Source of the DNA: Primula veris
Taxonomy: Eukaryota; Streptophyta; Magnoliopsida; Ericales; Primulaceae
Length of the DNA: 64,000 nucleotides
NCBI GenBank assembly: GCA_963682055.1
Contig: OY821749.1
Span: 30,015,631-30,079,630, forward strand
Reading direction: 5' to 3'
Part shown: piece after piece, positions 6,201 to 53,473 of the stretch
How the letters are laid out: each line of letters opens with the position of its first letter
Position numbering within the stretch: the first letter of the stretch is position 1
The notes under the pieces: model-generated
Told to the model about the DNA's origin: nothing
Database searches by the model: none
What the model saw: the letters and a program-made list of their open reading frames with translations, nothing else
Translations under genes and position numbers: made by a program

Positions 6201-9180
6201 GTTCTGCCAAATGTTGTAATTAGATCTTTTCTAGTAATGCCATTGCATAACTATACGTTCAAAAAAATTACAGGCTTAATATAGATTCATAATCAAAAAT
6301 TCCAACTCCTAATCTCCGCCTAGGCCTCAAGCCTCTAAAACCCGTGTCCCAAACTAATTTCATAACAATTGATAAATATAAAAATTCCACTTCAACCTAA
6401 AGAAAGCAAACTACCAGCACATATTATATCCCCTGAAGTCAACCCAACCTAATCTAGCAAATCGGATAATAAAATCTGCTTCTGCATATTTCAGAACAAA
6501 CCCTAAACAAAAATGTTAAAACACACACACACGTACGCGGAAGCAGTACCCAAATTCGTAAAGTTAGTAGTTTGGTACCTAAATTGTTATTGGATGGTTG
6601 TGTACTATGCATATTAAATTTCCCTTCTTCTTTTTTCTGATTTTTTTTTAAAAAAATTGCGAAAAATATGTAAATTTTAAAAGTTAATGGACTTTTATGT
6701 AGCATACTATGTTTCTCGTGTCCCTAAGGTGTCCACGGTGTGTCAAAGAAGTGTCCCTGGCGTGTCCGGGGAAGGGTCTGCGACACAGGAATAAGAGTGT
6801 CGAAATCATATCCGACAAGACACTTTTTCCTTCTTTTGAGTGTCCATACTATATAGATCATAAGTAATTAGTAACTAATTGAGTATAATAACACTTTATC
6901 TGACATATGTATATATACAAGAACAAATATAACAACTTCGTTAGGTATATTGTGGAAAATTTCAACAATTCGATTTGAACTCGTTCAACTCCGATTCAAG
7001 TAACATCAATTGACATCTGCATATACAAGCATATAGGTAAAGAGAAATTGGGTATATAAGATCATACTAGTAAAGATTGTACCCGAGATTACTTTTCTAA
7101 AGGCATACTAAAATAAAAGCACAGAGATATATGTACGCCATTCCATTTTATAGTGTCACAAATACGACACTTAGATTCAAAACCCTTTTATAATCCTATC
7201 CAGATAATATCAATTGGCAATACATAAACATAAATAAAAACAGCAATTGAGTATATAAATTACCGTACTTGTAAAGATTGCACTTGAGGTAACTGTTGTA
7301 CTAGGTATATTTATATACAAGCACAAATATATGACAATTTGGTTGATGCAAATTTCAGACAATTTGATTCATGTAAATTTTAGAAAATTCGATTCTGATG
7401 TATTCATTGTCATATACATACACAAACATAAATACAAAGTAAACAGCAATTGCGTATACAGGACTATACTAGCAAAGATTGCACTTGAGACCACTGTTTT
7501 AGAGAAACTCATAAACAAGCACAAAGATACAAGTAACAGTCTAATATATCGTGCCCAACTATGACAATTAGGTCTAAACAGAATAAAAATTCGACCCAGA
7601 TTACATCAACTGACATAAGCACATACAATCGTATGTAAAAACACTATTTGAGTATCAACAACCATTAAATTTGTACAAGTAGAGATAGCACTTGAGATTA
7701 CTGTTGTAATAATTGGTAATATGCATATACAATTAAAACATTTAATCAAAAAAACAATTTAGAATCCGACCCAGGTAACATCAATTGACAGACACATACA
7801 CAAAGATATACCTAAACAGCAATTAAGTAATAAAAAACCACACTAATAAAGATTGCAATTAATGAAACTGTTCCACTGCACAATTACATACACAAGCACA
7901 AAGATATACAATTACAACAATAATACAATTAGATTCAAATCCATATAAAATCGAATTGACATATACACACACAAACATAGAAAGCAGCAGTGAACGGGTA
8001 TATAGATAGGACCGTTCTAGTCAAAGATAGCACTTAATGTGATTGTTCCATTGGGCCTGTACATATACAAGCACAAAGACATATGTAACAAAGTTAATAA
8101 CACATACTGTGAACAATTACACTCAAACCCAGATAAAATTTAACCCAGTTAACATCAATCGACATGCTCATACAATACAAACATATACACAAACAATTGG
8201 GTATATTTGCATATGTATTAAGTATGAATAAAATCGTACTAATAAAGATTGCACTTAATGAAACTATTCCACTGGGAATATAAACACACAAGCACAAAGA
8301 TATACATTCACAACAATTAGTATCAAACCCATATGAAATCCGACCCATATAACATCAATTGACATATACATACAAAAACATATATAAATATAGGTAAACA
8401 GCAATTAGGTATAGAAATATAAATCGTCCTAACATAAAATGAAACCCATTTAACAACCCGACCCAGAAATCATAAACTGGCATTAAAATATACAATATTA
8501 TATAGAAACATCAATTAGGTATAAAAATAAAAATCGTACTAGCATAAAATGAAACCCATTAACAATCCAACTCAGATAACACACACTGGTGTATACATAC
8601 ACAAACAAGGCCGGTCTTGTCATAATCCAAGCGAGCCAAATATCTTCAACGTTGATAGGCCTTAAAAATAAAAATAAAATAAAACGGTTTTTTTTGCAGA
8701 ACGAAGTTGTTTTACCCCGTGATACAATACACTAATAACCTACTTTAATACTTTAATGGTCTATTTTGTGTAATGTACAAGACAATAGTTTGTTTTATTA
8801 TGACATGGTTCAAATTTTGCAAATTTTCTATGATCTTTTTTTAGCATGACAGCATTTTTTTTGAACAAAGTTAAAAAAAAGGCCTAAAAATTTCAACGAC
8901 GTAAATGTAAAAAACCACCGAACGGACTCTGTACACAAACATATACTAAAAAACAGCAAATGGGTAATAGGGCAAGATATAGATATATAGTAGATAGATA
9001 TAGATATAGTGAGATAGTGTACTAGTAGAGATTGCACTTGAGGCGACTATTCCATTTAGAGAAAGATCGAGGGACGGTGAACCGAGAGAAGAACTCCGCT
9101 AGAGGACGAGGAGGAGACGACCAATCAACCTCTCTTAACGCGTCCACCATATCCTCTGCCGTCACGTTGCTCCAATCCAT
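3250..9180 (-). CDS. PRA1.A: PRA1 family protein A (prenylated Rab acceptor)
   Basis: Seven exons, listed 5' to 3' on the minus strand: 9180-9023, 4636-4596, 4507-4429, 3896-3810, 3728-3640, 3516-3445, 3353-3250. They sum to 630 bases, 209 residues, the length I recall for Arabidopsis PRA1.A1. The protein starts MDWSNVTAEDMVDALREVDW and includes the conserved cytosolic stretch KMRPPLTPVIRGRPSAKRA. Hydrophobic pairs flank it (about residues 65-100 and 150-175), and it ends EEFRAVWRNYSEL. PRA1 proteins sit in ER, Golgi and endosomal membranes and bind prenylated Rab GTPases. Every junction has GT-AG and the phases agree. Exon 1 is separated from the rest by a 4.4-kb intron filled with tandem repeats (see repeat entry), so a short-ORF scan misses the gene. 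The upstream exon is anchored by the CNLYYYRTNYF junction across the intron. Confidence 0.95.
4637..9022 (-). other. PRA1.A intron 1, 4.4 kb
   Basis: This is the long first intron of PRA1.A. The donor GTACAC is next to 9023 and the acceptor GCAG is next to 4636. The distal half (4640-6880) holds degenerate dispersed-repeat sequence, including a GC-rich 'gcctggggg' stretch near 4715-4735 and a 'gtgtcc'-rich stretch at 6718-6850. The proximal half is a tandem array. I see no independent gene inside. Confidence 0.85.
6890..9060 (-). repeat. tandem array of decayed exon-1-end/donor copies
   Basis: Units of about 165-225 bp recur. Each combines an intron part ('acatcaattgacata...aaacagcaattgggtata') with a copy of the PRA1.A exon 1 3' end ('agattgcacttgag' on the plus strand). 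Exon-like cores lie near 7061, 7262, 7463, 7671, 7838, 8011 and 8233, and the real junction is at 9017-9060. Two further partial units near 8400-8570 keep the intron part only. On the minus strand the cores near 8240-8273 and 7844-7880 still read QWNSFIKCNLYY and QWNSFINCNLYY, against KWNSRLKCNLYY in the real exon. A possible insertion (about 8607-8932, bounded by 'aaggccggtcttgtc' and 'ggcctaaaaa') interrupts the array. Confidence 0.8.
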
Positions 9181-52700: not shown

Positions 52701-53473
52701 TAACCCTCAAGTTTCACACAATTTTCTTCAACAAAATTTTCGACTAATAAATTGCTCAAGGAAAAATTAGCAATGAAATCGCTACAGTTTTTTATGCTAC
52801 TCAGTTAGTCTTTTCTTATATATATAATTGGCAATATTTTTTGATATATATAATTGGAGCTATTCAGTTAGTCAGTTGCTATATTTCCATCACAAGTAAT
52901 TTAGCAACAAAATATGCTATGTTTGCCTCTCGTTCTTATAGTAATTAATGGTCAAGGTATACCAAAATTAATTCACCAAGTTTTCCACAAATAACAAAAC
53001 GATCATAAATCATACTAACAGACTACATATAATACCTCATCAAGCATAGAAACAAGCCTAGACTTGTACCCACCCCCTTCGACACCCCTCGCCATGTCAT
53101 CGTCTTCACCGAGATCCACTTCACCACCCTCCCCTTCCACGTCATACACCCCGCCTCTCGCCACGTTACACATCTCCTCCATCATCTGCTGAGCTGGCCT
53201 TAGAAACCTAGACCCCTTCAAGACCGAACCGTACCCCGTAAAAGGACCTAGCGGCACACTACTTCTAACCTGACCACCAGCCAAGTAGGGTTGAACCGGG
53301 GAGTGAGAAGATAGAGATAAAAACTGGTTTTGAACCGGGTTCATATTGGTGTAGAGATTAGAGTTAGGGAGAGGTGGGAGTACTAAAGATGTATTGCATA
53401 AAGGAGGTTCTCTTAGCTTAACCCTTCTGCTTTGTTGTGGGACATGGTAGGGTTCTTCAAATGCTTCTGCCAT
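46876..53473 (-). CDS. RPL: BEL1-like TALE homeodomain factor, REPLUMLESS/PENNYWISE type
   Basis: Four exons on the minus strand: 53473-53036, 48990-48623, 47958-47898, 47409-46876. They sum to 1401 bases, 466 residues. Domains: SKY box about 84-104 (LKGSRFLRPAQQMMEEMCNV), BELL domain about 137-200 (SRLVSMLDEVYKRYKYYYQQ onward) and TALE homeodomain about 245-308 with the PYP loop (269-271) and WFINARVR recognition helix (293-300). C-terminal motifs are ISLTLGLH and LFHDFVG. The start MAEAFEEPYHVPQQSRR and the phrase PLGPFTGYGSVLKGSRFL match the RPL/BLH9 clade (sister PNF/BLH8) as I know it. RPL pairs with KNOX proteins in the nucleus to control meristem, internode and fruit replum patterning. 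The start at 53473 was chosen by family match; the frame continues upstream to 53620, but that part looks like leader. Confidence 0.93.
49195..49375 (+). mobile_element. possible degenerate tRNA-derived SINE
   Basis: The sequence 'gaggggttgcctgaggtggt' followed by 'aagtc' looks like a Pol III A box. About 45 bases on, 'caggatcgatcatacacctc' resembles a B box. This spacing and the isolated GC-rich start in AT-rich DNA are typical of plant SINEs. The tail and target duplication are not clear. Confidence 0.4.
52385..52930 (-). repeat. tandem duplication near the BEL1-like exon 1 donor
   Basis: Two related blocks (about 52385-52590 and 52610-52930) share 'aacctca.taacagtata', 'aaccttctctg', 'tttcacacaattttc' and 'agcaacaaaatatgc'. 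Sequence beside each ('tatagtaat.a.tgtcaag', 'ttcaccaa') matches the true intron start at 52938-52980. The 'acctca...' part aligns, with gaps, to the exon 1 end at 53034-53065. It fits the exon-end arrays of the other genes but is more decayed. Confidence 0.5.

What the first reader, a model, noticed from the sequence alone, without database searches (positions are those of the whole stretch)
6890..53065. Several neighbouring genes carry first-intron arrays of their own exon-1 end plus 5' splice site
Seen directly: in PRA1.A (7 copies), ATG1 (2), the mitochondrial carrier (4) and, less clearly, the BEL1-like gene (2), intron 1 contains tandem units. Each unit couples the last 35-60 bases of exon 1 with the donor and the following intron sequence. 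The genes are unrelated and lie on both strands, so one transposon or one duplication cannot explain them. The shared register (first exon end, first donor) points to a process tied to promoter-proximal transcription or U1 binding, for example repeated tandem duplication at the first 5' splice site. Alternatively, such arrays may be kept because extra donor-like sites or intron starts raise expression, as in intron-mediated enhancement. I know of no described system of this kind.
Basis: partly seen in the sequence, partly recalled or inferred. Interest (0 to 1): 0.88.

Follow-up and report, generated by a model that had tools for sequence, protein, structure and literature searches.

The report
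Splice-site-anchored repeat arrays in first introns
In this plant, first introns of three unrelated neighbouring genes hold repeated copies of the end of exon 1, often with its splice site, likely because short tandem duplications keep arising near the start of first introns.

Summary
Real for three of the four named genes: intron 1 holds copies of the exon-1 end (donor GT kept in 9 of 14) in PRA1.A (7), ATG1 (2, perhaps 3) and a mitochondrial carrier (4); none of 200 shuffles scores as high. BEL1-like repeats only intron sequence. Around the window, exon-end copies (z above 8) occur in 3 of 16 first introns and 0 of 36 others (264 kb); direct repeats in 10 of 16 first introns and 1 of 31 others (294 kb), and outside the window in 5 of 11 vs 0 of 19. 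They fill 25.5% of the first 1.5 kb of first introns, 0.3% of other introns, 3.9% of distal intergenic tiles. The carrier's paralog on another chromosome has its own younger array, about ten 130-bp units beginning at the donor; one unit repeats 16 nt across the junction exactly. Limits: 0 of 10 MADS first introns carry exon-end copies; outside the window the donor register is only suggestive (4 of 11, P 0.07). I read it as recurrent tandem duplication near the start of first introns, leaving decaying fossils of exon 1 ends. Trigger and expression effect are untested.

The parts
9023..9180 (-). PRA1.A first coding exon; donor CTA|GTACAC (weak)
   Evidence: PRA1 family by Pfam on joined exons; frame continues into exon 2 at about 4636; donor score
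7012..8277 (-). PRA1.A intron 1: seven copies of about 35 nt of exon-1 end + donor + intron start, spacing about 200 bp
   Evidence: nhmmer hits 8277-8176, 8055-7958, 7878-7781, 7708-7599, 7507-7404, 7305-7195, 7099-7012; alignment; score 128 vs null max 92
8355..8544 (-). PRA1.A intron 1: two partial units (mostly the intron part)
12259..12504 (+). ATG1 first coding exon; donor GAG|GTCCGT
   Evidence: 90.7% identity to P0001 over residues 1-86; Pkinase
12448..12682 (+). ATG1 founder unit spanning the exon 1 end and intron 1 start
   Evidence: self-match -62..199 with 169..459
12679..13153 (+). ATG1 intron 1: two head-to-tail copies (12679-12942, 12939-13153)
   Evidence: nhmmer E 2e-61 and 4e-41 (iterated profile); degraded kinase peptide at 12673-12735 (E 0.008-0.58) and 12924-12986 (E 0.087) by tblastn
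13236..13283 (+). ATG1 possible third exon-end remnant
   Evidence: tblastn with P0011, E 6.7: weak
11923..12235 (+). duplicated stretch just upstream of the ATG1 start codon (11923-12071 and 12099-12235)
   Evidence: 82.6% over 149 columns
42200..42424 (-). mitochondrial carrier (MCF) first coding exon (start codon uncertain, ATG also at 42376); donor CAG|GTCCGT
   Evidence: Mito_carr; gene model
40294..42039 (-). MCF intron 1: four copies with exon end (42039-41878, 41698-41546, 40831-40634, 40420-40294) and one partial (41118-41000)
   Evidence: nhmmer; alignments; score 193 vs null max 104
43252..43491 (-). 124-bp tandem repeat about 0.8-1.1 kb upstream of MCF exon 1
32527..33012 (+). MIZ1-like (DUF617) intron 1: array of 29-bp units, exon not included
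   Evidence: exon end score 42 vs null mean 46
52399..52971 (-). BEL1-like intron 1: repeated intron sequence from +64; no exon-end copy

Best explanation
Several first introns in this plant region contain tandem arrays near their start, each made of the gene's own sequence, and these likely arise by recurrent short tandem duplication there, some starting just inside exon 1 and so copying the exon end and donor. Shown: the arrays, their enrichment in first introns, the head-to-tail units in ATG1, and a different, younger array at the same donor in the carrier's paralog. Inferred: one founding duplication per array, with its upstream breakpoint in the last few to about 60 nt of exon 1 or just after the donor, is expanded in register by unequal exchange or slippage; extra copies are tolerated because splicing can keep using the first donor and the old acceptor, so the mRNA stays unchanged; copies then decay into fossils of earlier exon 1. 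Inferred and untested: breaks linked to promoter-proximal transcription (open chromatin, R-loops) focus the duplications there.
For: Exon-end copies with z above 8 in 3 of 16 first introns (z 9.9-21.5) and 0 of 36 others; mirror test (start of the next exon) no z above 2.5 in 52. Direct repeats in 10 of 16 first vs 1 of 31 other introns, Fisher 1.5e-5; length-matched 600-1700 bp 5 of 10 vs 0 of 19; outside the window 5 of 11 vs 0 of 19, one-sided P 0.003. Repeat fraction: first 1.5 kb of first introns 25.5%, other introns 0.3%, upstream of genes 6.5%, downstream 3.1%, distal 3.9%, last 1.5 kb of the four first introns of at least 2.7 kb 0. Left edges -62, -54, -42, +6, +59, +64, +78 in 7 of 10 arrays, P 6e-5 under random placement. 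Head-to-tail units in ATG1. Paralog MCF_C9: 130 bp x 10.4, units up to identical; TTTTTCAGGTCTGTTT across the junction recurs exactly once at +1154, and eight other units carry the donor octamer GTCTGTTT after TGTTTCAT, 6 of 8 exon-side bases matching. All four C10 copies lack the three third-position changes that separate the C10 exon from C9, so they likely predate them. The PRA1.A query matched only its locus. Mean GC skew 0.20 in introns with an array near the donor vs 0.04 in non-first introns; rank test against all the rest P 0.0035.
Against: No exon-end copies in 10 of 10 MADS first introns (first ~2 kb) nor in paralog MCF_C3, and no score above the shuffles for a 60-nt exon end in MCF_C9. 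The donor register outside the window is weak: 4 of 11, P 0.072; 3 of 10, P 0.19 without the uncertain TPR model. Window genes prompted the hypothesis, so P values that include them are post hoc. In DUF604, CASPL and G153k repeats start 505-894 bp into the intron, and a plain count of arrays nearer the donor than the acceptor, 7 of 10, is not significant (P 0.17). Two other junctions score above their shuffles (60 each), though far less: NPF intron 2 (z 4.9) and TPR intron 8 (z 3.2). Most models come from my own gene finder and most names outside the window are by eye. GC skew is partly circular, is as high in two array-free first introns (FKBP 0.24, LHW 0.19) and low in TPR (0.03). No transcript, break-map or population data.
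Confidence: 0.55

Rival explanations
1. Selection for copy number: the unit carries a transcription-boosting element that works within about 1 kb of the start site, so extra copies at the start of intron 1 raise expression (intron-mediated enhancement); exon ends are passengers.
For: Arrays sit in the promoter-proximal zone and vanish in the distal part of long first introns. Gallegos and Rose (PMC6760150, abstract read) report that a transcribed promoter-proximal motif acts in proportion to copy number. Six first introns hold 5 sense copies of that motif, 1.3 expected, P 0.010. In MIZ1 intron 1 the loosely similar string TTGATTTTG occurs 5 times in sense and never in antisense.
Against: Inside the arrays the motif occurs once (0.5 expected), so the arrays do not multiply it; the window as a whole has 12 vs 9.6 expected. 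I looked for no other shared motif. MCF copies have decayed to 45-76% identity with the exon or each other, as expected of unconstrained sequence.
Confidence: 0.2
2. Ordinary neutral turnover: tandem duplications occur everywhere; first introns are long and weakly constrained, so they keep more of them, and the register is a chance cluster picked out by the first reader.
For: Local repeats also occur in intergenic DNA (21 of 92 tiles). Register outside the window is not significant. No exon-end copies in 10 MADS genes.
Against: First introns hold about six times the distal intergenic repeat fraction in their first 1.5 kb, and the far parts of the four longest hold none. Length-matched contrast 5 of 10 vs 0 of 19. 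The carrier paralog made a second array at the same donor.
Confidence: 0.2
3. A dispersed transposon or satellite inserted or amplified in several genes.
For: Repeats of many kinds lie in the window, including an LTR element.
Against: Units differ between genes and contain each gene's own exon end. The PRA1.A query (401 bp) matched only its own locus. The same search for the ATG1 and MCF units did not complete.
Confidence: 0.02
4. Relics of functional alternative exons: the copies were once spliced as alternative ends of exon 1.
For: Differences among copies lean to third codon positions, 27 of 57 (P 0.019), and the copies still spell recognisable peptides.
Against: In MCF three of the third-position differences from the present exon are explained by later change of that exon, as the C9 paralog shows. 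Three of four MCF copies have a stop just upstream of the exon-like part and have lost the donor GT.
Confidence: 0.03

Closest known systems
[quoted passage not shown] potato RdRp gene, Ma et al. 2016, PMC4974935; abstract and introduction read)
   Same: A tandem duplication crosses an intron-exon boundary and duplicates splice signals.
   Different: There the duplication crosses the boundary of intron 1 and exon 2 and makes a new intron; here it crosses the first donor, makes no new intron in the models, is repeated up to about ten times and recurs in several genes.
Internal gene duplication including introns (Gao and Lynch 2009 and Arabidopsis TOUCH3, as cited in PMC4974935)
   Same: Short segments duplicated inside a gene.
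   Different: Those duplicate whole introns with exon sequence on both sides; here only the 3' end of exon 1 and the start of intron 1.
Intron-mediated enhancement by repeated promoter-proximal motifs (Gallegos and Rose 2019, PMC6760150; abstract read)
   Same: Repeated elements in promoter-proximal introns.
   Different: The published motif is not multiplied by the arrays here, and activity was not tested.
Intronic minisatellites (general knowledge, recalled)
   Same: Head-to-tail repeats with homogenised middle units, as in the C9 paralog.
   Different: The unit starts at or near the first donor and in four genes contains exon sequence (only about 8 nt in C9).

Membership tests
Tandem duplication across an exon-intron boundary | Head-to-tail copies that contain sequence from both sides of the boundary | tested here: met
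   ATG1 units -57..177, 174..437, 434..648 relative to the donor; in MCF_C9 one unit repeats 8 exon and 8 intron nt exactly
Intron gain by tandem duplication | A new intron is created by the duplication | tested here: inconclusive
   In the models exon 1 joins the old exon 2 in frame; no transcripts or outgroup gene structures available
Intron-mediated enhancement element | Arrays multiply the published motif TTNGATYTG | tested here: not met
   1 sense match in 6,595 bp of arrays, 0.5 expected; but the six first introns as wholes hold 5 vs 1.3 expected, P 0.010
Intron-mediated enhancement element | Raises mRNA level by copy number | not testable with these tools
   needs reporter assays
Dispersed transposable element | Copies at unrelated loci | tested here: inconclusive
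   none found for the PRA1.A query; MCF unit searches and ATG1 unit searches did not complete
First-intron-specific process | Enriched in first over other introns | tested here: met
   10 of 16 vs 1 of 31; hold-out 5 of 11 vs 0 of 19. Regional sample only; MADS first introns: any repeat in 4 of 10, exon-end copies in 0 of 10, no later introns tested

The most novel reading that the evidence does not exclude
The neighbourhood of the first 5' splice site is a recurrent tandem-duplication hotspot in this plant: first introns grow from the exon 1 end outwards, over and over and separately in paralogs, by a mechanism tied to promoter-proximal transcription, and the arrays keep a layered fossil record of past exon 1 sequences.
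Probability: 0.35. Interest if true: 0.82.

Novelty: new variant of a known kind. Interest (0 to 1): 0.62.

Why it matters
Why first introns tend to be the longest is an old question, usually answered by selection for regulatory content (general knowledge). Arrays anchored near the first donor would give a mutational answer that can be tested, link promoter-proximal transcription to local DNA duplication, and give datable fossils of exon ends. The carrier pair (old array on C10, young array on C9) is a natural experiment.

Tried and rejected
Transposon or satellite: no support for PRA1.A; open for ATG1 and MCF. Published IME motif: not enriched in the window or the arrays, mildly in excess in six first introns as wholes. 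Copying of the start of the next exon into the intron: highest z 2.5 in 52 introns. Exon-end copies in BEL1 and MIZ1: not found; RopGEF intron 1 has an array from +6 but no exon-end copy. Exon-end copies as a general rule: not found in 10 MADS genes (donors there picked by score). A fixed unit size near nucleosome spacing: periods run from 29 to several hundred bp. A replicate region on C6 proved to be a tandem cluster of small genes with a LINE-like ORF and was not used for counts. The first two gene-finder settings were too loose or too strict and were dropped; counts rest on the second parameter set. From its output I kept by eye the models that looked like real multi-exon genes and dropped transposon-like, unrecognised and (nearly) single-exon ones, among them a lectin-kinase model with one predicted 248-bp intron and a small model at 181139-183435 just after FKBP. 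For one search I also trimmed the last predicted GST exon and three tiny FKBP exons. ELIP, LRR-RLK, DUF604, LHW, CASPL, AKR, NPF, GST, FKBP, TPR and G153k are names from my reading of predicted peptides, not from a call; the TPR start is uncertain. Paper searches (capped listings only, except PMC4974935 and PMC6760150) showed no description of first-intron arrays anchored at the donor; that is not proof of absence. A note in my notebook says 53 introns and 37 others; the rows add up to 52 and 36, used here.
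Full report
What was checked. The window is plant DNA, C10:30015631-30079630 of a 436.5-Mb assembly; among the best of 7,173 ATG1-like proteins are one unnamed entry and Camellia, Actinidia, Davidia and Rhododendron proteins (best 120 listed). Gene identities in the window are supported by Pfam for PRA1, protein kinase, DUF617 (MIZ1-like, name recalled), Mito_carr and POX (BEL1-like), and for PRONE in the flanking RopGEF gene.

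The copies are real. The last 60 nt of exon 1 against the gene's own intron 1 scores 128 (PRA1.A), 151 (ATG1) and 193 (MCF); the best of 200 dinucleotide shuffles were 92, 103 and 104. The two 60-mers further upstream in exon 1 stay within the shuffle range in these three genes. BEL1 (66, null mean 65) and MIZ1 (42, null mean 46) have no exon-end copies. ATG1 units abut head to tail at -57..177, 174..437 and 434..648 relative to the donor. PRA1.A has seven copies at about 200-bp spacing and MCF four. In PRA1.A the intron copies mostly resemble each other (0.50-0.85 in the exon part) more than the exon (0.49-0.58), so one capture followed by array growth is likely there; in MCF two copies (c1, c2) are closest to the exon (0.66, 0.76) and two (c3, c4) slightly closer to each other (0.72) than to it (0.66, 0.68). 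GT is kept in 6 of 7 copies in PRA1.A, 2 of 3 in ATG1 (the third being the doubtful remnant) and 1 of 4 in MCF.

Controls around the window. I fetched 100 kb on each side (264 kb with the window) and 30 kb more (294 kb), and made gene models with a small gene finder of my own. Of 52 introns of at least 200 bp in 16 genes of the 264 kb, exon-end copies with z above 8 occur in 3 of 16 first introns (the three window genes) and in 0 of 36 others; the next best are z 4.9 in NPF intron 2 and z 3.2 in TPR intron 8, both a little above 60 shuffles. The mirror test reaches z 2.5 at most in 52 introns. Direct self-repeats occur in 10 of 16 first introns and 1 of 31 others of at least 300 bp (17 models, 294 kb; Fisher 1.5e-5); at 600-1700 bp, 5 of 10 vs 0 of 19. 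Without the window genes, which prompted the question, it is 5 of 11 vs 0 of 19, one-sided P 0.003. The repeat fraction is 25.5% in the first 1.5 kb of first introns, 0.3% in other introns, 6.5% upstream of 22 genes, 3.1% downstream, 3.9% in 92 distal tiles, and zero in the last 1.5 kb of the four first introns of at least 2.7 kb.

Register. Left edges lie at -62 (ATG1), -54 (MCF), -42 (PRA1.A), +6 (RopGEF), +59 (TPR, model uncertain), +64 (BEL1) and +78 (MIZ1); three others start at +505, +827 and +894. For 7 of 10 within 80 bp a random-placement model gives P 6e-5 (6 of 9 without TPR, P 3e-4), but five of the seven are window genes, and a plain sign count (7 of 10 nearer the donor) gives P 0.17. 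Outside the window, with MADS genes and paralogs added and approximate lengths for these, 4 of 11 arrays start within 80 bp (1.7 expected, P 0.072; without TPR 3 of 10, P 0.19). I treat the register as suggestive beyond the window.

Other loci. Ten MADS genes on eight other contigs (ten of the eleven best of 150 matches) show no exon-end copies in the first ~2 kb of intron 1 (z at most 1.7) and self-repeats in 4 of 10, one starting at +69. The carrier's closest paralog (C9, exon-1 match 88% identical) has an intron 1 largely filled by about ten 130-bp units (10.4 copies, 95% matches). Most units align cleanly from +16; the match with one unit reaches -8. The 16 nt TTTTTCAG|GTCTGTTT across the junction recur exactly at +1154, and eight other units carry TGTTTCAT|GTCTGTTT, the donor octamer intact and 6 of 8 exon-side bases matching. 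Units u3, u4 and u7 are identical and unit 0 is the most diverged. A 60-nt exon-end test is negative there (score 68, null max 98), as only about 8 exon nt are involved. This array differs in unit and age from the C10 array. The more distant paralog C3 has neither exon-end copies nor a strong array.

Fossils. In the carrier on C10, three codons of the exon end differ from C9 at the third base; none of the four intron copies carries the present C10 base at any of them, and all four copies are slightly closer to the C9 exon (0.70, 0.81, 0.69, 0.69) than to the C10 exon (0.66, 0.76, 0.66, 0.68). The copies therefore likely predate these changes. Differences among copies lean to third positions, 27 of 57 (P 0.019), which fits either captures at different times or a coding past; the sample is small.

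Mechanism. Shown: arrays, location, own-gene sequence, two different carrier arrays at one donor. Inferred: one founding duplication per array with its upstream breakpoint in or next to the end of exon 1, growth by unequal exchange or slippage, tolerance because the first donor and old acceptor still give the same mRNA. Inferred and untested: why duplications focus there. Introns with an array near the donor have a mean sense-strand GC skew of 0.20 in their first 1.5 kb (mean of non-first introns 0.04; rank test against all the rest P 0.0035), which would fit R-loop formation, but repeats inflate this measure and two array-free first introns are as high. An expression benefit is the main rival. 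Its best-known motif occurs 5 times in sense in six first introns (1.3 expected, P 0.010) but once in the arrays themselves (0.5 expected); copy-number-dependent enhancement is published (PMC6760150, abstract).

Novelty. The nearest described process is tandem duplication across intron-exon boundaries, known as a route to new introns (PMC4974935, abstract and introduction). Ten paper searches (listings capped at 8-15 papers) listed no case of repeated, donor-anchored arrays in first introns of several genes. I rate it a new variant of a known kind, with a bolder reading open until a whole-genome scan is done.

Noticed in passing
window 56714-61735: Two 1,200-bp direct repeats, 98.5% identical and 3.8 kb apart, flank degraded retroelement-like ORFs: likely a fairly recent LTR element.
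   Followed up: no
window 34685-35087 and 33586-33754: A 104-bp tandem array downstream of the MIZ1-like gene, rich in TTGATTTTG, and a copy of its intron-1 repeat just after its stop codon.
   Followed up: partly
window 20969-21313: Inverted repeat with a 31-bp tandem repeat inside it, in an ATG1 intron; likely a small mobile element.
   Followed up: no
window 15587-15592: ATG1 intron 3 appears to use a GC donor (CAG|GCGAGT).
   Followed up: no
window 10379-10452 (-): tRNA-Val (CAC) gene between PRA1.A and ATG1.
   Followed up: no
window 25331-27709: Single-exon ORF of about 790 codons that looks like a receptor kinase (by eye), between ATG1 and the MIZ1-like gene.
   Followed up: no
G000 C11:7.5-8.0 Mb: More than twenty MADS-domain matches in both orientations, many with the same score and frame length: a large, probably recent local expansion.
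   Followed up: no
L041 (C9 carrier paralog, intron 1): 130-bp array whose middle units are identical while the outer ones are diverged, as expected of ongoing unequal exchange.
   Followed up: yes
first introns of PRA1.A, ATG1, MCF and RopGEF: The enhancement motif TTNGATYTG is in mild excess on the sense strand of first introns (5 vs 1.3 expected in six introns), nearly always outside the arrays.
   Followed up: partly
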